Shown: positions 33,941 through 52,649 of the stretch, piece after piece | Layout: each line of letters opens with the position of its first letter | Numbering within the stretch: position 1 is the stretch's first letter | DNA from: Hippopus hippopus | Taxonomy: Eukaryota; Mollusca; Bivalvia; Cardiida; Cardiidae | Direction of reading: 5' to 3' | Length of the DNA stretch: 64,000 nucleotides | Assembly (NCBI GenBank): GCA_946811185.2 | Contig: OX328100.1 | Span: forward strand, 18,464,999-18,528,998 | Position numbers and translations under genes: made by a program | Notes under the pieces: model-generated | What the model saw: the letters and a program-made list of their open reading frames with translations, nothing else | Told to the model about the DNA's origin: nothing | The model's database searches: none

Positions 33941-33946
33941 TATCTT
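33941..33946. other. Left target-site duplication TATCTT
   Basis: It is identical to 52644-52649 and abuts the terminal AGTAGATAG of the element. Six base pairs is the standard Polinton duplication. Confidence 0.93.
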
Positions 33947-34166
33947 AGTAGATAGTAAAATTCCCACCCTGGCTCTTTTTGGACGTAAATCACAAAATGA
34001 GCTAGCATTCCTAACCATATCATGGTGACTAACCCTCCAACCGACTAACCCTAACCACAACTAACCACCCAAATAAATTCCTTAATCGACTAACTAGTTA
34101 ACCAGACAAACCGACTAACTAGTTAACCACGAATCTAAGACTAACTTAAATTTCAAAAAATTTTGA
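33947..34166 (+). repeat. Left terminal inverted repeat of the Polinton
   Basis: It starts AGTAGATAGTAAAATTCCC and pairs with 52424-52643 with scattered mismatches and A-tract drift at the inner edge. The inner half (34027-34147) is built from many CTAAC/CTAACC words, including two ACTAGTTAACCA blocks. Confidence 0.93.
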
Positions 34167-34198
34167 TAAACAATTGAATTTAGAATTAAAACAATATA

Positions 34199-35918
34199 AT
34201 GGAAAACTATTTAGGAATTACAATTAATAATGATCTAAACGAATTATTTAGTAATCATGGACTGGATTTATTACGTAAGTATTATTTATTGAATGGGGAA
34301 ACTCCTCAACAAGCATTTGCAAGAGCTAGTGTGGCTTATAGTAAAGGTGATTTAGAATTTGCCCAGAGGATATATAATTATGCATCTTCTCGTAAATTTA
34401 TGTTCTCTTCTCCTATATTGAGTAATGCCCCATTACCAGATACAAAAGGGCAAAAAAGTCAACCAATTTCCTGTTTTTTGAGTTATGTTCCTGACAACAT
34501 AGAGGGTATCATTGATCATCTAAGTGACACATGTTGGTTTACAGTAGTAGGAGGAGGAATAGGAGCAGACTGGAGTTCAATTAGATCATCTGACGGTAAA
34601 TCAACTGGGCCAATTGCATTTTTAACACCTATCAATGCGGCAATAAACTCATATAAACACGGGAAAACAAGAAAAGGGAGTTATGCTGCATATTTAGATA
34701 TTACACATCCAGAAATAACCGAATTCATCTCAATGAGGATACCAACAGGTGGAGATATTAATAGAAAAAATTTAAATCTATTTAATGCTATTAATATCAC
34801 TGATGGCTTCATGAGAGCGGTTAAAATGGTACAAATTATGACCTTATAGATCCAAAAACAAAAGTTAGAACTCCAACAAATGCCAGGAGAATATGGGAAA
34901 CCATTCTTGAATCCAGAAGTAGAATAGGAACACCATATTTAAATTTTATTGATACTATAAATGCAGGTCTACCTCAAGTAATGAAAGACCAGGGATTAAA
35001 AATCTGTGGAAGTAATTTATGTAATGAGATTCATTTACCTACTGACGCAACTACAGATGCTGTATGTTGTATATCATCCGTAAACGTTGAGTATTATAGA
35101 GAATGGGATGAACAATTTATAAGAGATATTGTAAGATTTCTAGATAATGTATTAGATGTATTTATCTTAAATGCTCCAGACAATATTAAGAAAGCAAAGA
35201 AAGGAGCAATAAGAGATAGACCATTAGGCCTAGGAGTGATGGGATTAGGGTTTTTTTTTTTCAAAAAGAAGGTATTCCATTTAAATCAGATGAGGCAAAG
35301 AAACTTAACATTGAAATATTTAAGAGAATGAAAGAATATGCATTAAAAGAAACCGAACAACTAGCAAAAGAAAGAGGTGAATGCCCTTCAATGAAAGGCA
35401 CAGGAAGGAGAAACTCTCATTTATTAGCTATTGCCCCAACATCTAACAGTTCATTAATTATTAATAATTGCTCAGCTTCTATTGAACCAAATATAGCGAA
35501 TGTATATACATTAAAAACAAGAGCTGGAACATTCCTATGGAAAAATAAATATTTAGAAAATGAAATAGAAAAGATCAACCTCAATAACAAAGAGACTTGG
35601 GATTCTATAATAAAAAACAAAGGTTCAGTAAGTCATTTACCGTTGTCTGATGAGACAAAGAAAGTTTATAAAACAGCTAAGGAAATAGATCAGTTAAAAA
35701 TGATAGAATATGCCGTAGACAGGCAGAAATATATATGCCAGGGGCAATCATTAAATGTATTCATAAGCGCAGCCGCCAAAAAAAGGGAAATCCATGAGAT
35801 CCATTACAAAGCTTGGGAAATGGGATGTAAAGGATTATATTATTACAGAGGAGAAGCTGTAGATAAAGCTGAAGATATCTCTACTACTCCAAAGGAATGC
35901 ACTAGATGTGTAGCATAA
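34199..35918 (+). pseudogene. Ribonucleotide reductase class I large (alpha) subunit, two frameshifts
   Basis: The product would reduce ribonucleotides to deoxyribonucleotides in the cytosol together with a small subunit. Segment 1 (34199-about 34826) has the first redox Cys (QPISCFLSYVPDN) and NAAINSYKHGKTRKGSYAAY. Segment 2 (to about 35250) has the active-site loop SNLCNEI, with Asn, thiyl Cys and Glu, and the partner Cys in AVCCISSVNV. Segment 3 (to 35918) has the paired tyrosines of radical transfer (GLYYYRGEA) and a C-terminal CTRC cysteine pair. The full length would be about 570 residues, without an N-terminal ATP-cone, similar to compact phage-type enzymes. Breaks lie in an A4 run (34823-34826) and a T11 run (35251-35261); either could be a sequencing or assembly error. 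No small subunit gene is present in the element. It is the only plus-strand gene in the left 10 kb, and it converges on PolB. Confidence 0.93.
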
Positions 35919-35923
35919 TTATT

Positions 35924-35944
35924 AAATTGTTAAAATAACAATTT
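35924..35944. terminator. Hairpin after the ribonucleotide reductase stop
   Basis: AAATTGTTA, AAA loop, TAACAATTT: a perfect 9-bp stem six bases after the stop codon. Confidence 0.55.
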
Positions 35945-36000
35945 AGTAATTTATATAGTAGTGTGGTAGAAGATGTGGTATTTGGAGATTTGTGCAAGGA

Positions 36001-36021
36001 TAACTTTATTTTTTAAAGTTA
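36001..36021. terminator. Hairpin after the PolB stop
   Basis: TAACTTT and AAAGTTA form a 7-bp stem at the 3' end of the minus-strand polymerase. The same ATAACTTT/AAAGTTAT stem recurs at 49830-49862. Confidence 0.5.
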
Positions 36022-39000
36022 TATTTCATAATGCCCCCAAGCTAGTGTGTCAATCTTGTTCTCCAAGACAAACATTTTATCATCACTTGATCCTAACGCT
36101 TTTTTGTTTAACTCTTCAGTATACATATCATGGCTCCTACTTCTTAAAACAGTCATCTTTCTATACTGATCCTTTTCTGCAAGCAAACACTCTTTGTAAT
36201 TATCAAAATTTATCTCTTTCTTGATAACCGCTTCTTTAACACCTTTACACCTTTTATCTTCCTTACCATCTAAAGTTTCATAAGCGTACATTTTTGCTCC
36301 TAAACCAACAAACTCAATCATAATCTCACCACCTAACTCATCTTTAAACTTTCCAACTACTCGTGCATTACAATCATTTTTTAAGAAATTATCTTTAGGA
36401 TAATTACTTGTATCAAACATTTCAGATACATCTTTTTCTATATCCTTATACAAATTTTTAGTTTCTATTTCAAGAATAAAACTATCTGTATCAGTATAAC
36501 ACATTCTAACCTTTTCACCATACTTAGCTTTAAAGTAATATTAATAAGTTTTTTGCATATGTGTTTTACTGATGTCTAAGATGCTTAATCCTGAGTAAAT
36601 AGGTTTAATATATTTTAAATCAGTCTTTTTCATGTGTACCGCTGTTAGGTTTTCATCGAATATTGTTGTGTGGCTATAGTTTGGTTTTGCTACTAATTTC
36701 CTATAACGCTCCTCATTAGAAACCAGGTGTATCGTTACTCTATTTCTCAAGTTTTCCATAGTCTTACCAAAGACTGAATTATTCATCAACTTAAAAAAAT
36801 CTTTTTCAAAATTATTTTTAGCTGCTTTTGTTAGTTCAATGTTTGTATTAATGTATGACTTAAGCCATGCACTTTCCTCAAACTTAATTCCTCGATGTAT
36901 TTTAGTAATCTTTAAGCCTAAATCAACACATGTTTTTAAGGCTTCATGATGAATAACATAATTCTTTTTATTATTTAAGTTTGGAATAAGTTTTTCTACT
37001 TTTTCTATCTTTAAACGTTCAGGTGCTAAAGGAAAGTCATTGTGTAAATCATGTAATTCTTTAGGATATTCTAAATCTACTTCTAATACACATGGGATTT
37101 TTTGCCAAATTTCTAATTCTTTATTTTTCATCCATTTAAAACCATGAGTAGGAAGAGGACGACTCATTGCCCAAGGGTAAAGGCTGTTTGCATCTATATA
37201 TAATAAATATTTTGATGGTTTACTAGGGTCATATAATTCACCCATATCCTCATTATTTGCTTTTACATATCTTTTGCTACACATACTAACACCTCCTTTA
37301 ATACCTAATTCTACCATCAAAAGCATATCAGGATCAGATAAAAGCTCTAGGTTTACTTTTGTTATTTTTAATGCTGCATCCCAAGCTAAACCAGGAGCAG
37401 TATAATACCAACTAGGATCTAAGTCATAGTTTTCACAGCAAACATCTCTAAAGTTTTCAAAAACATCTGCTAAAAGCAATACATCTATTTTATTGTAAAG
37501 TTCTAAGTAATCCTTAAACGTTTTCATATTAAAAGCTTTCCAAACCTTTTGCGCATGAGCATAATCTTCATCTGTAATTCCTTCTTTGTTTAAACAAGAG
37601 TAAAATGCTTCTTTGGGTGGTAGTTTTTCTTCTTTAAGTTTATCAAATGAATCTAGGTACTCATAAGGAAAAACTCCTTTTCTCCTAACTAACGGTAGTT
37701 GTTCTTTAGTAAAATATTTTGCTAAAATTTTCAACTGACTTTCCTCTAAGTTGCTTGAAAGTTTATCCAAACTTGAATTCATAAACTTGAAGCTATCGAG
37801 GAATCTAATTTTATGGTTTATATTTTCTCCAACCCAAATGTCTTTACTAAAACTAATATATTTCTCTTCATTATTTGGAATACAATCAATCTTTCCTGCA
37901 GATTTACCAAGACATTTAATAAAAAGATGAGCATCATATCCACTAAGATTATGAAGGTACACAGGTGTGAAGTTAGGATTTTTAGCTTTTAGGTTGCATT
38001 TATTATGCGCGGCGCCTCTATATTTACCTGTAAAATGACAATGATCTCTTACTCTATAATCAGCATGATTAAATTTTCCACCACAAATCCAGCAGTGTGT
38101 TTGTTGTGTATGTTTTATTTTTTCCTCTATTGTCATTTCAATAGGCTTTGGGTTTTGGTGGTACCGTTGATGAATTTCTTGTATATCATCTTTTAACTGG
38201 TTTATAAAAACTTCCTCAGCATTTTCTCCGGTATAACTTCTTTCTACAGGATTACACACAGTATCATCAAAACATTTTACAATATAAGAAAAACTGCAAG
38301 GTATATGCTTTTGGCGCTGTATAGTATAACTTTTTTCTGGGTTTGGTTGGCATGTGTATATTGGTTCTAAAACACTTTCAAAATCAGCGTATACAGCAAA
38401 GGGAACCCGAAGTTTTCTAGCATGGTTTTCAAAAGCTAACATGGTACCTGGTTTTGGCATTTCTAAAGTAATAGGTTCATGTTCATTACAGTATTGTTTA
38501 TGTTTTTCTAAAAGTTCTTTACTACCAAAATGATTTAAACATCGCCTGCAATACGATACACTACCATGATCAATTGCTTGTTTTCTCATTAAACCACTAA
38601 AGTTTTTTATGAGGGCATAGTGCATGTTTTCCTCATCTTTAATAAAAAGAAGATCAATATGTTTACTTTTTTCATTATCTGTAATTCTTAAAGGATAAAA
38701 TTTACGATCATTGGTATACCCATAAACATTTACACTAATTTCAGGATTTTGTTTTTCGAACTTAATGATATCTTTAAACGAAACAGGATACTCTATTCCC
38801 TCCATGTTTAAACTACTTTCCTTTGCTTTTAAATCCTTGTCAACTTTCTCTGCATTATGCTCTTTAGGGTTTAACGCTCTTAAGATACACCATAAAAAGC
38901 ATTTACCATCTTTATTTTTCATATTGATAACTGCTTTTTTGTTAGTAATCCATTTTGGCAAAGGTAAGTGACCATTAGCTCTTAAAGGAACATAAGCAGC

Positions 39001-39624
39001 TGTATGTAGTTCTAACCGAACTATACTTCCAAAAGTCCAACCACTACCTTCTCTTTGAAAATTAGCTAAATTTTCTAAAACTTCATCTATCATTTTATTC
39101 AACAAATCCTCTACTTCTCCTCTGTTTAAATTTAAATGTTGATTACTATGGAAAGCACGTTCAACAGGGGCTTGGTCAAGATTTGTCATTAACCATAATT
39201 TACACCTAAGTACAAGTTTTACCTTTGTTTGTAAATTATTTTGAAGAGTATTTATAAGAGACATCCACGTTTCTGCGAAAAATCTTTGTGGGTTATAGCC
39301 TTCTCTACCCTCTATAACATGTTGAGTAGCATACCCTCTAAATGCGGATTGAGCAGCTCTAATCTCAAACGGCTGCCTTGGAGGGTAATTTTCACTAACA
39401 TGTTCAACAATTTCATCTAACACTTGTGGTATTTGTGTTGTCTCCACATTACCGGTTAACCAATTAGTAAAATCATTTATTCCTCTTTGTATGAATCCTG
39501 GTACGACAGCTGAGGCTAGTTGTCTTGTTCCAGAGTAAACATTAGACGCAGTTCGTCTTGCTCCTGAGTAAACATTAGACGCAACGCGTCTACCCATGTT
39601 TGTAAAACTATTAAATAAACTCAT
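36019..39624 (-). pseudogene. polB: Family B DNA polymerase (Polinton, protein-primed type), one in-frame stop
   Basis: It replicates the element's DNA in the nucleus. Order of parts: a basic N-terminal stretch with the repeat ASNVYSG (residues about 15-35); a Polinton-typical segment KNKDGKCFLW ... HYALIKN (237-341) that faintly resembles an OTU protease; a C2H2-like finger (359-381); ExoI YADFESVL (412-419); an endonuclease VII/HNH-like zinc insertion HCWICGGKF ... DHCHFTGKYRG (510-536); ExoII LHNLSGYDAHLF; ExoIII YNKIDVLLLADVF (710-722); polymerase motif A YIDANSLYPWAM (809-820); motif B KLMNNSVFGKTMEN (945-958). After residue 1027 a TAA (36541-36543) interrupts it. The same frame continues to motif C YTDTDSF and ends at 36019. 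So a single point change separates the last catalytic motif from the rest. The ATG at 39624 lies just after a TTATATAAAA box. Confidence 0.93.
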
Positions 39625-39684
39625 TTTTATATAACAGATATAATTTCTTAAGCAATTACAATTTTTCCTATTTGTTTCAAAAAT

Positions 39685-39714
39685 TTTTATTATAACAACA
39701 ATGTCATAATAAAA
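39685..39714. terminator. Hairpin after the SAP-like gene stop
   Basis: TTTTATTAT pairs with ATAATAAAA over a 12-nt loop, directly next to the TAA of the minus-strand gene that ends at 39715. Confidence 0.45.
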
Positions 39715-40062
39715 TTACTGAATGCAAATCTTATATTTATTTTTCCAAACCCTTCCATTCCAGTTCACAATTGTTTGAGGACAATGATCTATAAATTTAC
39801 CCGCCTTATAAATTGATGGAAAGGTTTTTATTTCACCAGTTTCAACATCCTCTAAACTAACTTCTTTAGGATTATGCATAATAATTTTTAATCTATCAAA
39901 CCTAGGGTCCTTGCTTATTTCTTTTTCAGGCAACTTGGGGGACTCCTCTGGTAACAATCCATGTTCGTTCACCAACTTAACTAACCGCTCTTTATCCCAG
40001 TAAGAGCAGAAAGTTATATTATTTTCTTTAAGAATTTTTTTTAAATCTGTAGTCTTTATCAT
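39715..40062 (-). CDS. Small DNA-binding-type protein (SAP-like and NUMOD-like parts)
   Basis: 115 residues. The N-terminal part (LKKILKENNITFCSYWDKERLVKLV, written here in two pieces: LKKILKENNITF and DKERLVKLV) has the spacing of a SAP-type helix pair. The C-terminal part (residues 75-115, with TFPSIYKAGKFI and VWKNKYKI) resembles the NUMOD1-type helix-turn-helix found beside homing nucleases. I infer DNA binding, perhaps at replication or packaging; no catalytic residues are seen. It lies between PolB and the major capsid gene on the same strand. TTATATAAAA precedes the ATG directly. Confidence 0.6.
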   Translation of the reverse strand: MIKTTDLKKILKENNITFCSYWDKERLVKLVNEHGLLPEESPKLPEKEISKDPRFDRLKIIMHNPKEVSLEDVETGEIKTFPSIYKAGKFIDHCPQTIVNWNGRVWKNKYKICIQ

Positions 40063-40084
40063 TTTTATATAAGAAAAAAATATC

Positions 40085-41371
40085 TTAATACACTACACTC
40101 ATTTTATTTCCATCAGACTGGAAGTTAATTAGCTTATCACAAATAACAACAGCATATGCCTCTGTGTTTGCAGGTACATTTTCAGTAAAATTTGCCTTGA
40201 TATGGATATCGTTGACTGAGTATTTTAATCTCTCACTCTGTTTGGAAACGTCAAACACAAACATAGGATAAAGGGTTTTATAATCTGGGGGAGTAATGTT
40301 AGGGTTTGACACCAATTCATCCATGTTATAAAACTTAGATCTAAATAGAGCAGCATCACCGTACACTCTACTAAATTGATGCGCAGTGAATGAAAGATTA
40401 TAGTCAACCGTAGGATATCTAACAGTATTTAACGTAACATAGATATTGTTAATGTTTGCATGATCAAATATTGCTGGATTTTGCTCTTGATCACCACTTT
40501 TACCAGTCTGAAAGCCAACAATGATAAAACGTGGCACCTCAGGTGATGATTTGGTAGAAAGTCTCCAGGTAAATGATGTTGTCTGAGGAACTGCGATAAA
40601 GTCGCACTGCCTCATTCTATATCCAACCGGTAATTTTTCTTTTTTCTCGATAATTTTATAAAGTACCATCTTCTCTCCGTCTGTAGGTAGCACATGTGGC
40701 ATAAACCAAGATATTTTAATTAAATTAATCCTACCATCAGCAGGAGCAGCACCATCTCGAAAGATTGCATCATTATCATCATTTCTTGTCAAGGTGAGGG
40801 TTTGCTTCATTCCATACAATATTTTATTATAATCATCACAAAAACCAAATATATGTTTTAATGGAACTCTGAAGCTAAAGGTACCTCTTGGAAGGGCATC
40901 CCTAATAATATACCTTCTTCTTACTTCAAAACCAGTGTTTCCAGCAGCTGCAGTATTTGTTGTATCCTTATACCACAATTGGTTTAACCCTTGTGATTTT
41001 GAGAAGTCATCTGGGTATTTTAACAACCCAAGCATTGTAGTAGCCTGGCCAGGATTCAATATGGATTCAATCTCCATACCTGAAAGTTGATACTTAATAT
41101 TTTTAAAGAGATACATGAGACCATTGTTTGTTAAAGAAATATTGGTGTTTGCATCGTAAGCTGCTCCAGTATCACTTCTTACTGATTCACCTATAATAAG
41201 TAAATAACTCTCACTAGGATGTTTAAAGATATCTTGAGTTTCAATGATAATCCTAATTTCTCCTCCTGAGTTGTTGAGATGTGTACCTGTGATCGGTTCA
41301 TACTCATGGTGTTCATACTCAACAATGCTATCATCTTTTAAAATTGGGTCAGTGATTCTTAAAATGTCCAT
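40085..41371 (-). CDS. Major capsid protein, double jelly roll
   Basis: 428 residues, beta-rich throughout, with the Polinton capsid-type phrases FRVPLKHIFGFCDDYNKI and GMKQTLTLTRNDDNDAIFR near the middle and PRFIIVGFQTGK about residue 280. Its length and position (among the other virion genes, opposite the integrase cluster) fit the trimeric hexon-like shell protein predicted for Polintons. The frame is intact. It starts at ATG 41371 and ends 22 bp before the next gene. The assignment is by sequence character from memory; a structure prediction would settle it. Confidence 0.78.
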   Translation of the reverse strand: MDILRITDPILKDDSIVEYEHHEYEPITGTHLNNSGGEIRIIIETQDIFKHPSESYLLIIGESVRSDTGAAYDANTNISLTNNGLMYLFKNIKYQLSGMEIESILNPGQATTMLGLLKYPDDFSKSQGLNQLWYKDTTNTAAAGNTGFEVRRRYIIRDALPRGTFSFRVPLKHIFGFCDDYNKILYGMKQTLTLTRNDDNDAIFRDGAAPADGRINLIKISWFMPHVLPTDGEKMVLYKIIEKKEKLPVGYRMRQCDFIAVPQTTSFTWRLSTKSSPEVPRFIIVGFQTGKSGDQEQNPAIFDHANINNIYVTLNTVRYPTVDYNLSFTAHQFSRVYGDAALFRSKFYNMDELVSNPNITPPDYKTLYPMFVFDVSKQSERLKYSVNDIHIKANFTENVPANTEAYAVVICDKLINFQSDGNKMSVVY

Positions 41372-41381
41372 TTTATTATTG

Positions 41382-41413
41382 CAATTATAATTTTTAAATA
41401 AAAATTACAATTG
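41382..41413. terminator. Hairpin after the 117-residue gene
   Basis: CAATTATAATTTTT pairs with AAAAATTACAATTG (one mismatch) over a 4-nt loop, seven bases beyond the minus-strand stop at 41420. It also sits just upstream of the capsid gene start. Confidence 0.6.
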
Positions 41414-41419
41414 TATACT

Positions 41420-41773
41420 TTACTCTAACCAAAGCTGGGTGAAAGACTTATTTTCATCATTAACAAACACACCTTTAAGTTTAATGCTTTTTGCAGTATC
41501 TAGTTTAGTTTTAGGATACACTCTATTACCGTATACAAGTGTTATTTGGGGTATATTCCACTCTTGTAAACGTTCATTCACCTTTTCCTCAATCTCTTTC
41601 ATTTCAATTACTTTTTCAGGAGATAACTTTACAATAGCTTTTTTATAACCATATTTTGCGTTATTAATTTCAAGGATTTCACAATCTTCTAATTTTAACA
41701 ATGCACCTACTATAGTAATAGAACTAGTATTGTATTTTTTATAATCTACACGATTAAATTTTAATTTTAACAT
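41420..41773 (-). CDS. Unknown 117-residue Polinton protein
   Basis: The frame is intact from ATG 41773. The protein alternates beta-strand-like segments (ITIVGALLKL, ITLVYGNRVYP, IKLKGVFVND) with one charged helix (VIEMKEIEEKVNERL). I do not recognise the family. A single-strand DNA-binding or replication accessory role is conceivable from the fold pattern, but nothing in the sequence proves it. It lies between the capsid gene and the small core-like protein gene. Confidence 0.6.
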   Translation of the reverse strand: MLKLKFNRVDYKKYNTSSITIVGALLKLEDCEILEINNAKYGYKKAIVKLSPEKVIEMKEIEEKVNERLQEWNIPQITLVYGNRVYPKTKLDTAKSIKLKGVFVNDENKSFTQLWLE

Positions 41774-41855
41774 CTTCTTTTTTAAGCAATGTTTTTTTCC
41801 TTAACTTATTTTTATTTTTTCTTCATACTACTTTAATGCCTGCTCCACTGTTTAA

Positions 41856-42221
41856 TTATTTAACTAAATCTTGAATAGCAATAGCACTTCCTTCTATTAA
41901 GGTATTAATGTCTTGCGTTTTAGGTGTATCAGCGGGTTTCGGTGGTGTGCTATATTTTTGTAAAATTTTCTTTGATTTTGGTGTCAAAGCTTTTGTAACC
42001 AATTTTTTCCCTGCATCTACGGCAGCACTTTTTCCAACCTCTAAAGCTTTCTTTGCACCTTCCTTTGCTACACTCTTTCCCACATCAAGGGCAGAAGATG
42101 CAATTTGTTTAGCTGCGCTACTTGTAAAAAACCTCGCTAAAAAGTTAGCAATACTGTCAAAGATTCCAGCACCACCGTATGAATACCTTCTTTTAAATCC
42201 GTGTTTTTTAGTGACAATCAT
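41856..42221 (-). CDS. Small basic Ala/Lys-rich virion protein, probable core or pVI-like
   Basis: 121 residues. A basic start (KKHGFKRRYSYGG) is followed by a hydrophobic amphipathic segment (FDSIANFLARFF) and an Ala/Lys repeat region with GKS motifs (DVGKSVAKEG, EVGKSAAVDAG). Such composition is usual for adenovirus-like core or membrane-active minor proteins. YGGAG could be a weak protease site but does not fit the adenain consensus well. A CTATAAAA box sits directly before the ATG. It ends the co-directional pair with the gene at 42224, only 2 bp away. Confidence 0.55.
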   Translation of the reverse strand: MIVTKKHGFKRRYSYGGAGIFDSIANFLARFFTSSAAKQIASSALDVGKSVAKEGAKKALEVGKSAAVDAGKKLVTKALTPKSKKILQKYSTPPKPADTPKTQDINTLIEGSAIAIQDLVK

Positions 42222-42223
42222 TT

Positions 42224-43213
42224 TTATAGTATAGACATTAAATTTTTATAAGTGTTTGTATTTAAAACACCTTGTCTTTTTAATTCATCACAAATGCTCA
42301 CCAACTCGTTTCTTACACGTGTGTTACCTGCTTCTTTACTTGCCAACAACAGGTCTAGTCTTTTTACTAATGCGTTAGGGATACACGGGATAACAATTCC
42401 TTTTCCAAGGAATTTTCTATCAAACCAAACGTGGGAAAGAATGTTTCTCCATTTATATGATTTACCGTTTTTTGGGTTTTTACTTTTTGGGTCATTATTT
42501 TGATAGAGGGTATTGGTGTAGTCCATTATATCCTTGTAATCTTCAAGATCCTGGGCATTATAAATATTTTCGTCTGGTTTTCTAGATATGATTAATTCCC
42601 ATAAACCAGGTGTACCTTCATAAAATCTTTCACCAACTAAAATATTATCTCCTGCAATGCCGACTGGTGTGTCACCAATATAAAATGCGCCATTTTTGTC
42701 ATATAACCCATACGTTGTATCAGCTCCATACTTAGTAGCAAACTTTCTTAGGTACTTCTCCGAGAGTGGTCCAACAAAAACTGGATAGTTCTGTTCTTCA
42801 TCTTTTTTATCCATTTCTTCCATATACCGCCTAATCTCATCAATTTCTTCATCTGTCAGTTTTTCTGGTTTTTTGTAAGCTTCGGTAGATGGAAATGCTG
42901 GAAACTTAATAGCTTCTGGTAATTTTTCTACACCTTCTTTAATAGGTATAAGCCTCTCAGTAATCTCCTTTGTTGCAGCTTTTTGTGCTTCTGTAATATC
43001 CTTTGTTGTAGCTTTTTGTGCTTCTGTAATCTCCTTTGTTGTAGCTTTTTGTGTTTCCGTAATAGGTTTAAAAAACTTTGAAAGATCTGTTTGGAGTTGC
43101 TGTTGGCCTGTTCTCTCTGCTAGCAGATTATCCCGAATCCTCTTTTTTGTTTCAAGATACTCCTTTACAATTAAGTCCCTTTTTGCAGGATCAGTGATTT
43201 TTAAAAAAGACAT
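42224..43213 (-). CDS. Conserved Polinton protein with coiled coil (DUF8207-like C-terminus)
   Basis: 329 residues. An N-terminal coiled-coil region holds three to four copies of an 11-residue unit (TEAQKATTKEI and variants, about 53-86). The C-terminal half contains YGLYDKNGAFYIGDTPV, GTPGLWELIISRKPDE and WRNILSHVWFDRKF, the pattern I associate with a domain widespread in Polinton-bearing invertebrate genomes (DUF8207). The function is not known; a virion or packaging role is inferred from its place between capsid-type genes. The frame is intact. Confidence 0.6.
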   Translation of the reverse strand: MSFLKITDPAKRDLIVKEYLETKKRIRDNLLAERTGQQQLQTDLSKFFKPITETQKATTKEITEAQKATTKDITEAQKAATKEITERLIPIKEGVEKLPEAIKFPAFPSTEAYKKPEKLTDEEIDEIRRYMEEMDKKDEEQNYPVFVGPLSEKYLRKFATKYGADTTYGLYDKNGAFYIGDTPVGIAGDNILVGERFYEGTPGLWELIISRKPDENIYNAQDLEDYKDIMDYTNTLYQNNDPKSKNPKNGKSYKWRNILSHVWFDRKFLGKGIVIPCIPNALVKRLDLLLASKEAGNTRVRNELVSICDELKRQGVLNTNTYKNLMSIL

Positions 43214-43334
43214 TTTTTAATTACTAAAATAATTTTTTATCTCAGTTCTTAGCATAGTTTTTATCATAATTTCTTAACATGTTTCATAACTAAAGCTGCA
43301 TGAAAACTTTATTTTTCTTGGTTTGTTACTACTT

Positions 43335-43925
43335 CTACGAGTGAGCGGTACGATTCTTTTCAACCAACTTCCGAAAGGACTCACGCGCTTCTTGCCTCCC
43401 TCTCTCAATTAAACTTTCTTCATTTTCAGCAAATATCTTTTTCTTAGTTTTTGTTCTTATTTCATCCTTCATCTTCTTATACTTCTCTTGTTCTTCCATG
43501 ATAAGTTTAAACTCTTCATCTGATATATGACTGTCAACTAAAGCTTTAGATATATGTGAAGCAATTGTGTCAAGCTTAGCATCAGCTGTCATCCGAATCT
43601 TTTGATGTTTTTCTCCTTTTGTTTTTGAATTCCTTACTACATACTTACCTACCATTGAGAGTAAGCCGGTTGCTGCACTTGTAATTTCTAAACCTAATGC
43701 TATTGGTACCGCTGCAACTGTACCCAATAGTATGGCTCCTCCAACACCAGAAGCCATTGTTAGCCCAATCAATGCTGTATCAATACTATCAACAATTCTT
43801 GCGGCTCTAAAATATTTCTTAGCTAAGGCTTCTCTTTTTTGGATTTCATTCTCAAGAAACTTCTGTACTTCAGATATCTTTTGTAAACGGTAGGAATGTC
43901 CTTTATCATCCCCTATTGTGTGCAT
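43335..43925 (-). CDS. Membrane-segment protein of unknown function, conserved in Polintons
   Basis: 196 residues from ATG 43925. The frame extends 10 codons further to a TTG, but the ATG is the better start. An N-terminal helix (EVQKFLENEIQKREALAKKY) is followed by a hydrophobic Gly/Ala-rich segment (GLTMASGVGGAILL through VPIALGLEI, written separately), probably two membrane helices. A charged helical C-terminus (DEEFKLIMEEQEKYKKMK) follows. This layout is seen in other invertebrate Polinton-type proteins. A role in the virion or at membranes is inferred. It is divergent from the pVI-like gene at 44042. Confidence 0.5.
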   Translation of the reverse strand: MHTIGDDKGHSYRLQKISEVQKFLENEIQKREALAKKYFRAARIVDSIDTALIGLTMASGVGGAILLGTVAAVPIALGLEITSAATGLLSMVGKYVVRNSKTKGEKHQKIRMTADAKLDTIASHISKALVDSHISDEEFKLIMEEQEKYKKMKDEIRTKTKKKIFAENEESLIERGRQEARESFRKLVEKNRTAHS

Positions 43926-44626: not shown

Positions 44627-44627
44627 T

Positions 44628-45820: not shown

Positions 45821-45854
45821 AAAAATATTATTTAGTTGAGTAAATAATATTTTT
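45821..45854. terminator. Perfect hairpin after the ATPase stop
   Basis: AAAAATATTATTTA pairs perfectly with TAAATAATATTTTT over a 6-nt loop. The 14-bp stem touches the stop codon of the ATPase and precedes the penton gene start by 13 bp. Confidence 0.7.
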
Positions 45855-46636
45855 TATACTGACTTAGGTATGTAAAAGTTAACAAAACCGTTTCTATACT
45901 TCCCATCATGTTTTTTACTGGTTAGATCTATAATAGCAAAGCCGTGCGGTCTTTCCCATGCCCTTTTACAAAATTCCCTAAATTCATCCTTTGGCATATC
46001 ATCACCTACATGATCACTATAAATATGGTTAATGTTTTTTAGGTCTTGCCGGAAAAGACAAATAAAATTAGCGTTTTCTCTAATAGTTTGCCTTGGTAGC
46101 CTGAAATAATTCTGTGAAAGGTAAAAGCAGTCAACATTACTATGTCTTCCACGAATGTAGTAACACTCACATTTGCTTTGCTTTTCTAAAAGTAGATCAT
46201 CAAAAATCATTAATCTTTTATTTTCTGGGTTTAACTCTCTCGGATCAGGCACATCACTCGCATTTTCAAAAAAGTTACAACTTATATCCGATTTGTTTTT
46301 AAACGACTTCATCCATTCCTCAATTAAAGCTATAGGGGAAACATCTGCATCCTGTATTTCATCTCGCATGTTAAACAACTTTAAAATATGTTCTTTTGGT
46401 AGTTTTTCTTCAAAAGCCTTTTTTAGTATTCGGTATTCTGGTTGAAAAAGACTTTTTCCAAAAACACTTAAATCATTGTAGTCGAGCCATCCCGGTCTAA
46501 GTAAAAGGTTTAACAATAGAGTAGTTTTACCACATCCTGATTTACCTATAATTAAACCTCTGACACTTTTTGGTAAAAGAGAGTGATTAAATCTCTTTGA
46601 TACTATTTCATTCCATGATAAGTTTACAATATCCAA
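45854..46636 (-). CDS. FtsK/HerA-type DNA-packaging ATPase, start codon changed
   Basis: 260 codons. Walker A is GKSGCGKTT (31-39) and Walker B RLMIFDDLL (141-149). CYYIRGRHSNVDCFYLSQNYF carries the sensor region (given here as two parts, YYIRGRHSN and CFYLSQNYF). This is the A32-like genome-packaging motor of Polintons and related viruses. The first codon is TTG (46636-46634), directly preceded by a TTATATAAA box at exactly the place where its neighbours have ATG. No upstream ATG in frame is evident, so the start was probably ATG and has mutated. The rest of the frame is intact. It is divergent from the PLA2-like gene across 34 bp. Confidence 0.85.
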   Translation of the reverse strand: MDIVNLSWNEIVSKRFNHSLLPKSVRGLIIGKSGCGKTTLLLNLLLRPGWLDYNDLSVFGKSLFQPEYRILKKAFEEKLPKEHILKLFNMRDEIQDADVSPIALIEEWMKSFKNKSDISCNFFENASDVPDPRELNPENKRLMIFDDLLLEKQSKCECYYIRGRHSNVDCFYLSQNYFRLPRQTIRENANFICLFRQDLKNINHIYSDHVGDDMPKDEFREFCKRAWERPHGFAIIDLTSKKHDGKYRNGFVNFYIPKSV

Positions 46637-46670: not shown

Positions 46671-47168
46671 ATGTATTGTGTTAAATGTAAAAAACATACT
46701 GATACAAACGATATAGAATATGCTGTTGCTAAAAATAGAAGAAATATGAAACGGGGAAAATGTGTAGTTTGTGGAATAACTAAAAATCAGTTTGTTAGGG
46801 AGACAAAGGGTGGATCATTGCTAAATAAAGCTATAAATAATTTACCTTTTGAAATGCATCTCCCTGGTCACAATTTCACAGGTCCCGGCACTAAATCAAA
46901 GAAAAGACTCAATCCAGATTCAACACCAAAGAAATGGAGCAAACCAATAAATCGTGTTGATAAAGCTGCTTACCATCATGATGTTTGCTATCTTCAACAT
47001 AATGATACTGCCACAAGAAACGCAGTATGTGATAAAAATATGTTAACAGAGTTAGAAGGTATTTACAATCCTACTATTAGAGAAAGAATGGAAAGGGGGT
47101 TGGTAAGTAAACTCATTGGAACGAAGAGGAAATTTGGAATGGGAGTTAAAAGAAAAAGTTCAGCATGA
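46671..47168 (+). CDS. Phospholipase A2-like virion protein with zinc ribbon
   Basis: 165 residues. The N-terminus has a Cys4 ribbon (C3, C6, C31, C34; YCVKCKK ... CVVCG). The C-terminal part has LPGHNFTGPG, a calcium-loop-like segment (64-73), and AAYHHDVCY (99-107) with the His-Asp pair of secreted phospholipase A2, as in parvovirus VP1. In that family the enzyme helps the particle leave the endosome. TKGGS at 45-49 may be a weak protease site between the parts. The last four bases overlap the integrase start (ATGA), so the two are probably expressed from one transcript. Confidence 0.8.
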   Translation: MYCVKCKKHTDTNDIEYAVAKNRRNMKRGKCVVCGITKNQFVRETKGGSLLNKAINNLPFEMHLPGHNFTGPGTKSKKRLNPDSTPKKWSKPINRVDKAAYHHDVCYLQHNDTATRNAVCDKNMLTELEGIYNPTIRERMERGLVSKLIGTKRKFGMGVKRKSSA

Positions 47169-48070
47169 TAAATTTAGCGGAAGAATTACATAAACCTGTA
47201 AAAAGAAAATTTAAGAAAAGGAGAGTTAGAGTAAACGGTATAGATAAAATATGGGCTGTGGATTTAGTAGACATGCAAGCATTTTCTAAGTTTAATCATG
47301 GTGTAAAATACCTTCTCGCTGTCATTGACATCTTTTCTAAATATGGATGGTTGATACCATTAAAAGATAAAACTGGAAAACCTGTTGCTATAGCACTAAA
47401 GAGTATTTTTGAGGAGAGAAAACCTGAAAAAATGTGGGTGGATAAGGGTAAAGAGTTTTATAACAAAGATGTAAAAGACTTGGTTGAATTGTATTCTACT
47501 GAAAATGAGGAAAAATCTAGTGTTGTTGAGAGATGGATTAGAACAATGAAAGAAAAAATGTGGGAGTATTTTTCTGCTCATTCTACAAATATTTACATTA
47601 ATGTGTTACCAGATCTCGTTAAAGGATATAATAACACAAGACATTCATCTATTAAGATGGCTCCAGTAAATGCTAGTAAAAAAGAAAATGAAACCAAAGT
47701 TTGGAGAAATCTTTACCCTGATCATCTCGAAATAAAAGATATAAAACCTAAGTTTTCTGTTGGAGACAAAGTAAGGATAACTAAAAAGAAAAAGACTTTT
47801 GAGAAAGGTTATACAACAAGATGGACTGAGGAGGTTTTTACAGTTTCTGAAGTAAAACATACATCACCTGTAACATATAAAATTCAGCATCTTAATGGAG
47901 AAGAAATACAAGGTACCTTTTATGAACCTGAACTGCAGAAAACCAGTCAAGAGCTGTATAGGATAGAAAAGGTTATTAAAAAAGGAAAAAGGAGGTCTCT
48001 TGTAAAGTGGAAAGGTTATTCTGACGAATTTAATTCATGGGTTGATAATAAAGACATTAGAAATATTTAA
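47165..48070 (+). CDS. int: Retroviral-type (rve) integrase with C-terminal chromodomain
   Basis: 301 residues. The core starts WAVDLVDM (first Asp, residue 33), then WVDKGKEF (second Asp, 93) and SSVVERWIRTMK (Glu, 122). The spacing between second Asp and Glu is 28 residues, shorter than the 33-35 usual for this family. An SH3-like part (KFSVGDKVRI) follows, and a chromodomain ends the protein (YRIEKVIKKGKR ... LVKWKGYSDEFNSWVD, 262-297). It would insert the element and create the 6-bp duplication; chromodomains can steer insertion to modified histones. The frame is intact. It overlaps the PLA2-like gene and is followed by the protease 9 bp later. Confidence 0.93.
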   Translation: MINLAEELHKPVKRKFKKRRVRVNGIDKIWAVDLVDMQAFSKFNHGVKYLLAVIDIFSKYGWLIPLKDKTGKPVAIALKSIFEERKPEKMWVDKGKEFYNKDVKDLVELYSTENEEKSSVVERWIRTMKEKMWEYFSAHSTNIYINVLPDLVKGYNNTRHSSIKMAPVNASKKENETKVWRNLYPDHLEIKDIKPKFSVGDKVRITKKKKTFEKGYTTRWTEEVFTVSEVKHTSPVTYKIQHLNGEEIQGTFYEPELQKTSQELYRIEKVIKKGKRRSLVKWKGYSDEFNSWVDNKDIRNI

Positions 48071-48079
48071 CTATAAAAA

Positions 48080-48496
48080 ATGTTAGATATTTCGATTGAA
48101 AACGTAATTTTACCAGATAAACCGCAAAGCAATTTCGAGTTAGAAGATGCTGCAAAAAGATTAAAGATTCCTTCTTTTAGGGGAATTTTTTTACTAGATA
48201 CGTTACCGAGAAAACCAAATAAAAAAGAATGTGGTATAGTAAACTTTGATAAAAGTGGTGGGCCTGGTACACATTGGGTTGCTTGGTATAAAAACGGTAA
48301 AACTAAAATTTATTTTGACAGTTATGGAATACAGCCACCTAATGAAATTCGAGAGTACCTAAAAAGTCCAATACAGTACAATACTGATCAATTACAACAA
48401 GCTGGACAAGTATTTTGTGGGCATTTATGTTTGTACATTCTAAAGGAGTTAAGCTCGGGTAAAAAGTTTCAAAATGTTTTAAATAAACTTTTTTAG
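48080..48496 (+). CDS. Adenain-like cysteine protease
   Basis: 138 residues, somewhat shorter than adenovirus protease. The catalytic triad is visible as GTHWVAWY (His65), IYFDSYG (Asp80) and QVFCGHLCLY (Cys113), with Gln107 as the oxyanion residue. It would mature capsid precursors at (M/I/L)xGG-x sites; such sites occur in the pVI-like protein (IEGGF) and in the protein at 51685-52146 (IRGGH). CTATAAAAA directly precedes the ATG. The frame is intact. Confidence 0.9.
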   Translation: MLDISIENVILPDKPQSNFELEDAAKRLKIPSFRGIFLLDTLPRKPNKKECGIVNFDKSGGPGTHWVAWYKNGKTKIYFDSYGIQPPNEIREYLKSPIQYNTDQLQQAGQVFCGHLCLYILKELSSGKKFQNVLNKLF

Positions 48497-48507: not shown

Positions 48508-49773
48508 ATGCCAGTTGATAAATTTGGACGAATGAAAGATGATAAAACAAGCGGTGATGGTGTGTCACTCGATTACATGAATAATAATTTTTTACGTAAA
48601 GATGGAACAACTGTTGTTTCTGGTTCTATAGACATGAATGGTAATACATTAACAAGGGTTAGTAATCCTGTAAATCCACAAGATGTTGCTACGAAACATT
48701 ATGTGGATGGAAATTCTGGTGGTTTATTAAAAGAAAATGGTGGATACCAAGCCCTTGGATTTATAAATATGGGTTTCAATGAAATAAGAAATGTTAAAGA
48801 GCCTACAGAACCTAACGAAGCTGCTACTAAAAAATATGTGGATAGGAGTGGTAAAGCAATAGTAGAGAACCAAGACGGCACTTTTTCCGCTATTGCAAAT
48901 ATAGATATGCGGGAGTATACTTTAACTAATCTTTTGGATCCCGCAGATGCTCAAGATGCAGCAACTAAAAGATATGTAGATAGTGCAAATAAAGCCTTTG
49001 TTTATGGAGCTGGTAGGTATATGGCAGTTGATGACGTTCTATAGGAGGACGAAGAATTAACAATTTTGGAAGTCCTTTAGAAAATGATCAAGCTGTAAAT
49101 AAGTTTTACGTAGATACCCTCGTTGAGGTGGCTACTGCGGGTGAAAAAGCTTTGACTAAGAAACAAGATGGATCTTTTTCAATGGCTGGTGGAATAGATA
49201 TGAATGATAACCCGATTACTGGATTACCTAATCCTACATCACGTGATGCTGCTGCTAATAAAAATTATGTTGATAATGGTGGAGCTATCGTAAAAAATCC
49301 AATTGGAAGCTTCACAGCGGTGGCTAACGTAAATCTCCAAGGTTTTTCATTAAAAAAACGCTGCAACCCCGGTAGAAGAGAGAGATTTAGCAACAAAATC
49401 CTATGTGGATAAAAAGGTATCCCTTCCTTCTCTCATAGGCCCTAAACCTATTATAACTGTGTGGGCTGAAGAACAAGGGCCAATTGGAGATGGTAATTAT
49501 GAGTTCTCTTTTGGTAATGGTAATTCAGGAAAAAGGCATGGTTTAGGGGGTTACTGCATGAGTGCGTCAGGTAGAATTATAAGAGGAATTTTAACGATTG
49601 TTAAAAAGGATCTTAATGTACCAGAAGAGGTACAAGTTAATATTGCAGTAAACGGATTGGAGCAGGTTGATTACTCTATTATTAAAAAAGCGGATGAAAT
49701 TTGTAGTTGTACGATTTTTCCGAGGGCATTGGAGGTAAAGCAATGCGACATCATAAACTTTATTTCAAGATAA
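48508..49773 (+). pseudogene. Phage-tail-like fibre protein, two frameshifts
   Basis: Six copies of a repeat of about 40-50 residues end in the signature DAATKxYVD (for example VATKHYVD, AATKKYVD, AATKRYVD). Each copy is preceded by an IDMNGN-type strand. Such repeats form trimeric shafts in phage tail and collar fibres. The C-terminal domain of about 110 residues (from PIITVWAEEQGPIG to CDIINFISR) is probably the tip that contacts the cell. The frame changes just before 49044 and again in the A7 run near 49350-49357. The repeats carry on in the new frame each time, so the breaks are recent. It follows the protease by 11 bp and ends at the hairpin shared with the RING gene. Confidence 0.78.
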
Positions 49774-49829: not shown

Positions 49830-49862
49830 AAAATATAACTTTGTTTATAAAAGTTATATTTT
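49830..49862. terminator. 13-bp perfect hairpin between convergent genes
   Basis: AAAATATAACTTT pairs perfectly with AAAGTTATATTTT over a 7-nt loop. It overlaps the stop of the minus-strand RING gene (49854) and lies 57 bp after the fibre stop. The core AACTTT/AAAGTT is shared with the hairpin after PolB. Confidence 0.7.
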
Positions 49863-50663
49863 ACGTTTGATTGTGCTTTTTGTTTTACAGATTGGGCAAC
49901 TGGCAAAGTTACCGTTTGTGTTAAAAGTATGACAAATACATATATGGCCACAATTACAAAATAATATATTAGGATCTTTTTCTAAGCATATAACACATGT
50001 TCCTGATTTAAATGTTTCAATCCCATTAGTTACAATAGGATGTTCTCTTTCAACTACTATTGTTCTGGTTTCATTAGGTACATTATGAACTACTGTTGTG
50101 ATTTCAAGATCTGATATATTAGTTCTGTTATTAGTCCAGTTTTCAGTTACATCTAAAAAACCAAACTCTTCTTCATCTGGATTTTCATCTGATTCACTAT
50201 CAGTAATTATATTACCAATAAGTATGGTTGGTGAAAAAGTAAGATACTCCCTATATGCTATACTTATAACATCATTTCTTTCAATATCTACTACACTATC
50301 TAGATTAAGAAATTTATTAAATTCACTTAGAATATTATTAGATTCTTCCTCATCTGATCTATATGTGTAAACCCCTTGTATTTGTTCATGTAAAGGAACA
50401 TATGGTAACTCTACCACATTAACACAAATACCAAAAGTAACATAATCAAAATGTTCTAGTATTTTACTACATTCATAATATAAAGCAGGCTTTAAGTTAT
50501 GGAGTATTTCAATATGATTTTTGTTTTGTGCTTTAGGAAACTCTATCTTTTTTCTACATTCGTAGTAAGGTGAACGATATCGTTTGGAGATATGGTTAAT
50601 TTTATTCTCCAACATATCATTTAATTTATCACTAAAAATATCTATTTTTGTTTTAACACTCAT
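49854..50663 (-). CDS. RING-finger protein, copy 1 (IAP-type RING)
   Basis: 269 residues. The N-terminal 190 residues are not recognised. They share an LKPALYYE/LKPVVYYL core and the LENK start with the gene at 50739-51580. An acidic stretch (ESDENPDEEE) follows. The C-terminal RING begins CVICLEKD and continues PNILFCNCGHICIC to CPIC near the end. One expected ligand pair reads CHTF rather than CxxC, so zinc binding may be altered. Such RINGs act as ubiquitin ligases, and in viruses they often block apoptosis or immune signalling; this role is inferred only. The frame is intact from ATG 50663. Confidence 0.72.
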   Translation of the reverse strand: MSVKTKIDIFSDKLNDMLENKINHISKRYRSPYYECRKKIEFPKAQNKNHIEILHNLKPALYYECSKILEHFDYVTFGICVNVVELPYVPLHEQIQGVYTYRSDEEESNNILSEFNKFLNLDSVVDIERNDVISIAYREYLTFSPTILIGNIITDSESDENPDEEEFGFLDVTENWTNNRTNISDLEITTVVHNVPNETRTIVVEREHPIVTNGIETFKSGTCVICLEKDPNILFCNCGHICICHTFNTNGNFASCPICKTKSTIKRKI

Positions 50664-50741: not shown

Positions 50742-51580
50742 GATTTTTCTTTTTATTGTGGTTGTTTTTCTACAGACTACAGTTATCTTGGTATAATTCA
50801 AGGCAGTCGGAACATATGGGTATATGACCACAGTTGCAGAATAATATATTTGGTTTATTTGTGGTACATATCAGACATGAATCTAGGTTGAAGCATTTTA
50901 GATCGTTAGTTGGAGTGAAATCATTTAGTATTCCTTTAACTGCATTGAGGGCAACAGCTTCATTATAAATAACTTGTGTTGTATGGTGTTGCGCTGATGT
51001 ACCGTTAATTGTGTTTTCACCATATATCTCATCATCTACTACCTTACATGCTTCACAGTGGTTACAGTTACATTTTCTGTTTTGGCTTGGTTCTACTATA
51101 GTTATGGATGCACTGTATGGTTTTAATGCCAATCTTGTTTCTGCAATGAAATCGTCCTTATAAACAAGTAATCTTTCTGATGATTCGAATAAGTTGTAAT
51201 TTATAAAAAAAATGTTCTAGCCTTTGAGTTGTTAATATTATAAATTGATCATCTGCCATAAACCATAGGATTGCTATAGCATCGTTATATTTAGCTTTCT
51301 TTTTTGATAAAAGATAATATACTACTGGCTTAAGGTCTTTCAGGAAGTTTGTATAAGTCTTGGTTGGGGTTTCTTGGAAATCATAGATTGTTCTTCCTTT
51401 CCATAATTCTGACTTGGTTATGTCTGTTGGGTCGTAAAGGAGTTTGTTCTCTAGGTGGTTCTCTAGGATGGTTCCAAAGGTTGAAACAAATTGTTTTACG
51501 TTTAGTGGCGGGATAGTTTTTGGTTTAGAGGAATATGGTTTGTGAGTAACCTTAAAACTTTTTGATTTGATCATATCCAT
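50739..51580 (-). pseudogene. RING-finger protein, copy 2, two frameshifts
   Basis: The frame opens at ATG 51580 and runs to an A8 run near 51206-51213 (forward strand), where it shifts. The part after that continues to the RING CLICTTNKPNILFCNCGHIPICSDC. The frame is lost a second time at the last zinc-ligand pair (about 50771), and a tail like that of copy 1 can still be read in another frame to 50739. The LENK, LKP-YY and PNILFCNCGHI blocks show that copies 1 and 2 arose by tandem duplication. Here the ligand pair ICSDC that copy 1 has lost is kept, but the final CPxC is broken. Confidence 0.7.
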
Positions 51581-51662: not shown

Positions 51663-51692
51663 ATATATAACTTACCATGGTAGGTTATATAT
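51663..51692. terminator. Palindrome over the stop of the last gene
   Basis: ATATATAACTTACC pairs with GGTAGGTTATATAT (one mismatch) with almost no loop. The TAA of the gene at 51685-52146 lies inside the stem. Confidence 0.6.
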
Positions 51693-52146
51693 CTGTTTCA
51701 ATGTTGCTTGCTGATCTATTTGCTATTTTCCTTGTCATATTTATAAATGAGGCGTTATGTCCTCCTCTTATTTTCCTCTTGTCTTTATTAAAAGTTAAAG
51801 CAGAATCGTCGTTCAATAATGAAAGATTATTTGCAATTTCAAATATTATCTCATTTCTGGTTTTTCCCTTTTTTTCTATCCTTATTCCATAATATCTCTT
51901 TGATTGGTTTATTATTTCTCTTTTAGAAAAATTAGCATAATTATATAAATTTTGCCATAACCCTACTATGAGTGGTGTTTTTTGTCTTATTCTTTCATCT
52001 ATACTATCTATGATGAAGTTTACATGATTACCTAGTAACACAGCAAATCTAGCAGAATATAGTCTTTGGAATTCCTTTGGAAAATCTGAAATTAAATTTT
52101 TGAATTTATCTTTAGCTGCATCAACATTTACTAAATTCTCTCTCAT
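51685..52146 (-). CDS. Unknown protein with adenain-type site
   Basis: 153 residues, frame intact from ATG 52146. Mostly helical and basic. IRGGH (126-130) fits the (M/I/L)xGG-x protease consensus, which suggests a virion precursor. The middle part (RYYGIRIEKKGKTRNEI) may be a small DNA- or RNA-binding helix pair. No family recognised. It is the outermost gene on the right, about 280 bp from the inverted repeat, mirroring ribonucleotide reductase on the left. Confidence 0.5.
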   Translation of the reverse strand: MRENLVNVDAAKDKFKNLISDFPKEFQRLYSARFAVLLGNHVNFIIDSIDERIRQKTPLIVGLWQNLYNYANFSKREIINQSKRYYGIRIEKKGKTRNEIIFEIANNLSLLNDDSALTFNKDKRKIRGGHNASFINMTRKIANRSASNIETDI

Positions 52147-52423: not shown

Positions 52424-52643
52424 AAATTTTTTTTTTAAATTTAAGTTAGTCTTAGATTCGTGGTTAACTAGTTAGTATGTTTGTCTGGTTAACTAGTTAG
52501 TCGATTAAGAAATTTATGTGGGTGTTTAGTTGTGGTTAGGGTTAGTCGGTTGGAGGGTTAGTCACCATGATATGGTTGGGAATGCTAGCTCATTTTGTGA
52601 TTTGCGTCCAAAAAGAGCCAGGGTGGGAATTTTACTATCTACT
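52424..52643 (-). repeat. Right terminal inverted repeat of the Polinton
   Basis: It is the inverse of 33947-34166 and ends TTTACTATCTACT. The differences from the left copy are few (for example TTGCGTCC against GACGTAAA), so little time has passed, or the ends were homogenised. Confidence 0.93.
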
Positions 52644-52649
52644 TATCTT
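52644..52649. other. Right target-site duplication TATCTT
   Basis: It is identical to 33941-33946. Confidence 0.93.

What the first reader, a model, noticed from the sequence alone, without database searches (positions are those of the whole stretch)
34199..35918. A Polinton that carries a ribonucleotide reductase large subunit
Seen: thiyl-radical loop SNLCNEI, both redox cysteines, the YY radical-transfer pair and a C-terminal Cys pair, all inside the element between its left inverted repeat and PolB. Known: the Polinton core set is PolB, integrase, protease, ATPase and capsid genes; nucleotide-reduction genes are typical of large DNA viruses and phages. Inference: this lineage gained the gene from a phage or a large virus to raise dNTP supply. 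It lacks the small subunit, so it would need the host's.
Basis: partly seen in the sequence, partly recalled or inferred. Interest (0 to 1): 0.88.

Follow-up and report, generated by a model that had tools for sequence, protein, structure and literature searches.

The report
Phage-type nucleotide reductase in Polintons
A virus-like jumping element in an animal genome carries, in three related families and about a hundred copies, a gene of bacterial-virus type for the enzyme subunit that makes DNA building blocks; selection has kept it in working shape, but its usual partner subunit is missing.

Summary
Window 33947-52643 is a complete Polinton: 214-bp inverted repeats, 6-bp target duplication, double-jelly-roll capsid, ATPase, integrase. 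A class I ribonucleotide reductase large subunit (RNR alpha), frame-broken in this copy, lies between its left repeat and PolB. The host genome holds at least 111 RNR matches of 450 nt or more on 18 contigs, 55 in open frames of 560 aa or more, in three families. Family A has the gene at the PolB end, B at the opposite end (two B elements have perfect target duplications), C beside PolB in the one element read. Trees put all sampled Polinton copies in one clade (100/100) among phage-type, ATP-cone-less alphas, apart from giant-virus enzymes, which the host's own exon resembles. Intact copies show purifying selection (dN/dS 0.13 in A, 0.20 in B) and keep the catalytic residues. The only small-subunit gene found is the host's. 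A and B capsids are close, yet their RNRs are saturated at synonymous sites, so the RNR end behaves as a swappable cassette. Most likely a replication cargo from a phage-type source, using the host small subunit without dATP feedback; that pairing is inferred, donor and species range open.

The parts
33941..33946 (.). target site duplication, left copy (TATCTT)
33947..34160 (+). left terminal inverted repeat
   Evidence: 214 nt, 96% complementary to 52430-52643
34199..34849 (+). RNR alpha, open segment 1 (all-alpha domain and start of barrel; first redox Cys)
   Evidence: PF02867 5e-25, PF00317 3.8e-13
34981..35331 (+). RNR alpha, open segment 2 (SNLCNEI radical loop, second redox Cys)
   Evidence: PF02867 2.7e-16
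35328..35918 (+). RNR alpha, open segment 3 (YY radical-transfer pair, C-terminal Cys pair)
   Evidence: PF02867 2.3e-39
36019..36504 (-). PolB C-terminal segment, cut off from the main frame
   Evidence: 84% identical to the C-terminal part of an intact family C PolB
36541..39624 (-). DNA polymerase B (identified by motifs only, recalled) with endonuclease VII-like stretch
40085..41371 (-). [quoted passage not shown]
   Evidence: PF21738 3e-54
45854..46636 (-). A32-like packaging ATPase
   Evidence: PF04665 33.7 bits over cut-off 22.8
46671..47168 (+). DUF5679 plus phospholipase A2-like protein
47165..48070 (+). rve integrase with chromodomain
   Evidence: PF00665 3.2e-7 (31 bits, cut-off 32.6), PF00385 2e-5 (24.9 bits, cut-off 25.1)
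48080..48496 (+). probable adenovirus-type cysteine protease
   Evidence: by place (recalled); PF00770 only E 0.14
48508..49044 (+). phage tail-fibre-like repeat protein
   Evidence: PHROG tail protein 4.5e-20
49854..50663 (-). RING-finger protein 1; a homologue lies beside the RNR in 17 of 20 fetched family B loci
50770..51132 (-). RING-finger protein 2
51685..52146 (-). o516, end gene of unknown function; its homologue takes the RNR's place at the PolB end of two family B elements
52430..52643 (-). right terminal inverted repeat
52644..52649 (.). target site duplication, right copy (TATCTT)

Best explanation
A Polinton lineage captured, probably once, the large subunit (alpha) of a phage-type, ATP-cone-less class I RNR, without the small subunit (beta) that sits next to it in phages. 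The gene is a replication cargo of the element's virus-like phase. It forms a holoenzyme with the host's own beta and reduces ribonucleotides. Because it lacks the ATP cone, this enzyme would not be shut off by dATP at alpha, so the element could copy its DNA in cells with low nucleotide pools. The gene travels in a terminal cassette next to a TIR, and these cassettes are exchanged between Polinton lineages. Shown: presence, copy number, position inside TIRs and target duplication (window copy and two B elements), one clade, phage-type affinity, purifying selection, conserved catalytic residues, mosaic ends, no beta found outside the host gene. Inferred: expression, pairing with host beta, loss of dATP control, benefit to replication, single capture.
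For: Other copies: 130 matches in the own genome; 111 of at least 450 nt on 18 contigs, 55 with open frame of 560 aa or more. Linkage: 42 of 98 scored capsid genes have an RNR within 25 kb, 21 in geometry A and 18 in geometry B. TIR match in 40 of 40 fetched A loci and 19 of 20 B loci. Two B elements (16.8 and 19.3 kb) have perfect 6-bp duplications, CATGTC and GGCACC. One family C element has RNR beside an intact PolB. Trees: Polinton clade 100/100 within phage-type alphas. Selection: dN/dS 0.126 (A, 13 intact), 0.204 (B, 8 intact), 0.089 (A versus C). Radical-loop Asn, Cys, Glu, redox and tail Cys 23 of 23, YY 22 of 23. No ATP-cone match; best solved relatives 6dqw/6dqx of 585/574 aa. A beta lies within 2.5 kb of alpha in 5 of 5 phage records opened. 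Class Id alphas lack the ATP cone (PMC8463856, passages) and have median length 565 aa (PMC9531940, passages).
Against: No expression or enzyme data. Whether a phage-type alpha can bind an animal beta is unknown; alpha and beta pairs co-evolve (recalled). Only 23 of 62 fetched loci are intact, and the window copy is broken. 58 of 98 top capsid genes have no RNR within 14 kb, so the gene is dispensable for many elements. No other animal genome could be searched; the protein collection, which holds scallop Polinton-type capsids at about 70%, shows no RNR above 61% among the 120 best listed.
Confidence: 0.58

Rival explanations
1. The alpha protein works without catalysis: as a decoy or regulator, for instance binding host beta or an antiviral factor, as some herpesvirus alphas do (recalled).
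For: No beta of its own. Lone viral alphas with non-enzymatic roles exist in herpesviruses (recalled, no call).
Against: Catalytic and radical-transfer residues, including the tail cysteines, are kept in 22 or 23 of 23 intact copies across three diverged families.
Confidence: 0.17
2. The donor was a bacterium (symbiont or gut bacterium) with a phage-type alpha, not a phage. This is compatible with the rest of the best explanation.
For: Francisella and a few others carry the type. The sister set P0001/P0002/P0037/P0052/P0100 is on unnamed contigs up to 93.5 kb.
Against: The type is rare in the sampled genomes of two classes: 1 of 385 and 5 of 369 at E 1e-150, the 5 including the Francisella that defined the class; 2,937 phage records have a match over at least 80% of the query, of any alpha type.
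Confidence: 0.3
3. A host or giant-virus RNR gene landed in the element.
For: Giant-virus-sized contigs and the host do have alphas.
Against: That type forms a separate clade, 100/100 (a long-branch warning was given for the class Id outgroup). The host exon is 50-68% identical to that type, 40-49% to Polinton copies.
Confidence: 0.02
4. The beta comes from a co-infecting virus or another element rather than the host.
For: Only one beta gene, read as the host's, was found in the genome, so a beta carried by something not integrated would not be seen.
Against: No candidate found; selection on alpha would then depend on co-infection.
Confidence: 0.08
5. Passive passenger: one chance insertion amplified with the element and not used.
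For: Many broken copies; many capsid genes without an RNR nearby.
Against: Third positions take 65% (A) and 57% (B) of RNR substitutions and dN/dS is 0.09-0.20; nine capsid genes of A and B elements show only 40% at third positions.
Confidence: 0.02

Closest known systems
Polinton/Maverick elements (adintoviruses)
   Same: TIRs, 6-bp target duplication, double-jelly-roll capsid, ATPase, integrase, PolB by motif
   Different: Carries an RNR large subunit in a terminal cassette; the paper listings showed none about this by title or start of abstract (passages read in three papers)
EMALE07, an endogenous mavirus-like element (PMC8547959, passage)
   Same: Small integrating virophage-like element with an RNR gene
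   Different: It has the SMALL subunit, in one EMALE type of a flagellate; here the LARGE subunit, in an animal genome, three families, over 100 matches
Phage-type NrdA of marine Caudoviricetes (Methylophilales phage Melnitz-1, Pelagibacter phage HTVC019P, phage C48C1)
   Same: Alpha of similar make-up, 50-55% identical over 97-99% of the query
   Different: These phages carry alpha and beta together (5 of 5 records opened); the Polinton has alpha only
Class Id RNR alpha (PMC9531940, PMC8463856, passages; 6dqw and 6dqx are class Id by recall)
   Same: Minimal architecture, median 565 aa, no ATP cone
   Different: 6dqw falls outside the phage-type clade on a long branch; its beta is Mn-dependent and absent here

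Membership tests
Polinton/Maverick | Terminal inverted repeats | tested here: met
   window; two family B elements, (79.7% and 96.5%). Not shown for family C: no TIR match in L153 or L154
Polinton/Maverick | 6-bp target site duplication | tested here: met
   window TATCTT, two family B elements CATGTC and GGCACC
Polinton/Maverick | Double-jelly-roll major capsid | tested here: met
   PF21738 3e-54
Polinton/Maverick | A32/FtsK-type packaging ATPase | tested here: met
   PF04665 over cut-off
Polinton/Maverick | rve integrase | tested here: inconclusive
   PF00665 3.2e-7 but 31 bits under cut-off 32.6; chromodomain 2e-5, also just under cut-off
Polinton/Maverick | Protein-primed PolB | tested here: inconclusive
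   No polymerase profile matched; DANSLYPWAM, NSVFGKTMEN and YTDTDSF motifs read by eye (recalled)
Polinton/Maverick | Adenovirus-type protease | tested here: inconclusive
   PF00770 only E 0.14
Class I RNR large subunit | All-alpha plus barrel domains | tested here: met
Class I RNR large subunit | Radical-loop and redox cysteines, YY pair, C-terminal cysteines | tested here: met
   22 or 23 of 23 intact copies
Class I RNR large subunit | Cognate small subunit in the same element | tested here: not met
   PF00268 found only four exon matches within 4.1 kb on C4, read as one host gene
NrdA of NCBIfam NF006577 (PRK09102) | Score over the curated cut-off of 620 | tested here: met
   692.8, 658.8 and 665 bits, one protein each of families A, B, C
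Class Id RNR | No ATP cone in alpha | tested here: met
   all-alpha domain starts at residue 16 of segment 1, no ATP-cone match; intact proteins 566-574 aa
Class Id RNR | Mn2 small subunit | not testable with these tools
   No beta in the element
Eukaryotic/giant-virus RRM1 type | Groups with that clade | tested here: not met
   100/100 the other way

The most novel reading that the evidence does not exclude
Polintons of this animal trade RNR alleles as a swappable terminal cassette and use them to hijack the host small subunit, forming a hybrid phage-animal RNR that dATP cannot switch off. That would let a Polinton replicate as a DNA virus in non-dividing cells, and would make RNR a recurring, contested gene of animal Polintons rather than a curiosity.
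Probability: 0.38. Interest if true: 0.88.

Novelty: new variant of a known kind. Interest (0 to 1): 0.76.

Why it matters
Polintons are thought to be viruses that mostly live as transposons, but direct signs of a replicative, virus-like phase in animals are few (recalled). A nucleotide-supply gene kept under purifying selection across families is a sign that selection sees DNA synthesis by the element itself. It also shows gene flow from phage-type sources into a eukaryotic virus lineage, and poses a clean biochemical question: can a phage-type alpha run on an animal beta?

Tried and rejected
Other Polintons in IMG/VR: scans with the capsid and with PolB found no relative. Eight Polinton genes of the window gave no match in 80 RNR loci (positive control on the window; one search was the first run) nor in 106 further phage, bacterial and IMG/VR loci (no new control); the 75 loci were not tested. 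The first bacterial scan with one protein found nothing; the alignment scan found 10 loci. Searches of 385 and 369 genomes for the sister protein P0001 found 1 and 5 at E 1e-150, so its owner stays unknown. Searches that did not complete, because the machine was busy: PF02867 and the ATP cone PF03477 in the own genome. Rejected: contamination (copies on 18 contigs, inside elements where read); host-gene origin; giant-virus origin. A-B and B-C synonymous distances are saturated, so no dN/dS is given for them.

The first look had 150 candidates, so counts may be lower bounds. Families are my own cut: A is identity of 83% or more, C is an open frame of exactly 576 codons, B the rest, including one outlier of 61%. 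I fetched 62 of the 111: 40 of 48 A, 20 of 46 B, 2 of 17 C. One of the 40 A loci (L126) has only a 28-nt TIR match at its edge. The B left end was read in two elements, the A right end only in the window, and C's PolB side in one element (L153 with L273). Rows left out of trees: 7 near-identical Polinton rows; 10 Polinton rows and 3 long-branch rows (a fourth, imgvr_L177, re-entered); one search used a chosen subset of 24 rows of the earlier set, 16 of 31 eukaryotic-type alphas and 6dqw, and its label 'phage-type' includes bacteria and unnamed proteins.

Full report
What is there. Window 33947-52643 is bounded by 214-bp inverted repeats, 96% complementary, with TATCTT directly outside each end. 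Inside are a double-jelly-roll capsid, an A32-like ATPase, an integrase (rve and chromodomain matches just under their cut-offs), RING proteins and a PolB recognised by motifs only. Between the left repeat and PolB lie three open segments of one RNR alpha gene.

Other copies. Searching the own genome (1.07 Gb, 34 contigs) with the third segment gave 130 matches from 150 candidates. I worked on 120 of these rows, leaving out 10 adjoining fragments; 111 are at least 450 nt long, on 18 contigs, and 55 lie in open frames of 560 aa or more. I split them into A (48, 83% identity or more), C (17, defined by an open frame of 576, identity 71-73%) and B (the other 46, 61-78%). Of 62 fetched loci, 23 hold an intact frame: 13 A, 8 B, 2 C.

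Linkage. Of 98 scored capsid genes (first look 2,482 candidates), 42 have an RNR within 25 kb: 21 with the A geometry at 4.1-4.2 kb, 18 with the B geometry at 9.0-12.4 kb on the other side, and 3 odd. Within 14 kb, 58 have none, 40 have one, and none has two. Every fetched A locus (40 of 40, one by only 28 nt) and 19 of 20 B loci match the window's TIR.

Three architectures. A, as read in the window: TIR, RNR, PolB (reverse) ... RING1, RING2, o511, o516, TIR. B: at the left end of two elements TIR, o516 homologue, PolB; at the right end RNR running outward to the TIR, with a RING1 homologue beside it in 17 of 20 loci. C, in one element: RNR, o516 homologue, PolB (intact, 1,190 aa, 78-80% identical); no TIR match was found for C. 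The two B elements with both ends read are 16,795 and 19,303 bp long, with perfect target duplications CATGTC and GGCACC. In them DNA identity to the window is 95.8-95.9% over the 1.3-1.5 kb of PolB read, while outward of PolB's end the o516 homologue stands where A has RNR. The RNR thus sits in an end cassette that has been exchanged.

Discordant histories. Capsid genes of five A and four B elements differ by dS 0.07-0.14 between families, while RNRs of 13 A and 8 B copies are saturated (median pS 0.79). Even for the same three A elements, RNR dS is 0.20-0.23 and capsid dS 0.07-0.11. I read this as recombination between Polintons with unlike RNR alleles. Gene conversion of the capsid is a variant that I cannot exclude.

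Selection. dN/dS among intact copies is 0.126 in A (78 pairs), 0.204 in B (28 pairs), 0.135 in C (1 pair) and 0.089 between A and C (26 pairs, dS about 2). Third positions take 65% (A) and 57% (B) of substitutions, against 40% in nine capsid copies. Choosing intact copies excludes stops but does not by itself produce a synonymous excess of this size. Most RNR differences therefore arose while the gene was working, before insertion; the capsid differences look closer to neutral decay after insertion. The radical-loop Asn, Cys and Glu, both redox cysteines and both tail cysteines are kept in 23 of 23, and the YY pair in 22 of 23.

Origin. One protein each of families A, B and C passes the NCBIfam cut-off for NF006577. 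The 120 best relatives listed from the protein collection are 56-61% identical, and the 25 best phage records 49-55%. In three trees the Polinton copies are one clade (100/100) and sister (100/99 or 100/100) to a small set of unnamed proteins, inside a group made up mostly of phage and viral-contig sequences with a few bacteria. Sixteen eukaryotic- and giant-virus-type alphas form a separate clade (100/100), and the host's own exon belongs with them by identity; it was too short to place in the tree. That tree warned of long branches meeting at the class Id outgroup, which does not touch the Polinton placement. The gene type is rare in two sampled bacterial classes (1 of 385, 5 of 369 with the Francisella centre counted). 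I therefore favour a phage-type source but cannot name the immediate donor.

The missing partner. A genome-wide search for the small subunit found only four exon matches within 4.1 kb on C4, which I read as one host gene. All five phage records that I opened have a small subunit within 2.5 kb of alpha, one of them fused to glutaredoxin. The Polinton kept alpha alone.

How it may work. Intact proteins are 566-574 aa with the all-alpha domain near the start and no ATP-cone match. In class Id enzymes the alphas identified so far lack this domain (PMC8463856, passages), and they were described as a minimal architecture of median 565 aa (PMC9531940, passages). An alpha without the cone, if it pairs with host beta, should escape dATP inhibition at alpha. 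The pairing itself is inference.

What is known. One virophage-like element, EMALE07, has an RNR small subunit (PMC8547959, passage). Searches for Polinton, Maverick or adintovirus together with ribonucleotide or ribonucleoside terms listed no paper that is about a Polinton RNR by title or the start of its abstract; I read passages in three and no whole paper. So I found no description of this, which does not prove that there is none.

Limits. That collection gave 5,135 capsid relatives, some on contigs of up to 13 Mb, presumably eukaryotic, with listed identities of 66-74%; its best RNR is 61%. This suggests that the cargo is restricted to this host's lineage among those sampled, with the caveats that broken frames are missed, that only the best candidates were scored and listed, and that near records may be left out.

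Noticed in passing
window 48508-49044 (+): Phage tail-fibre-like repeat protein (PHROG tail protein 4.5e-20): a second phage-like gene in the same Polinton.
   Followed up: partly
window 36541-39624 (-), residues about 498-545: PolB reading frame carries an endonuclease VII-like stretch (PHROG 5e-8; Pfam just under cut-off).
   Followed up: no
window 49854-50663 and 50770-51132 (-): Two RING C3HC4 proteins near the right end; possible ubiquitin ligases or apoptosis modulators.
   Followed up: no
window 46671-47168 (+): DUF5679 fused to a phospholipase A2-like domain.
   Followed up: no
window 54139-54538: Fold-back palindrome with 200-nt arms, 82% complementary, no spacer, outside the element.
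   Followed up: no
L155 4473-5681: Methylophilales phage Melnitz-1: the 'hypothetical protein' after alpha is a glutaredoxin-small subunit fusion, so its alpha, annotated as B12-dependent, is probably class I.
   Followed up: partly
own genome: 2,482 first-look candidates for the capsid, 98 of them scored: suggests a large Polinton load, not measured.
   Followed up: no
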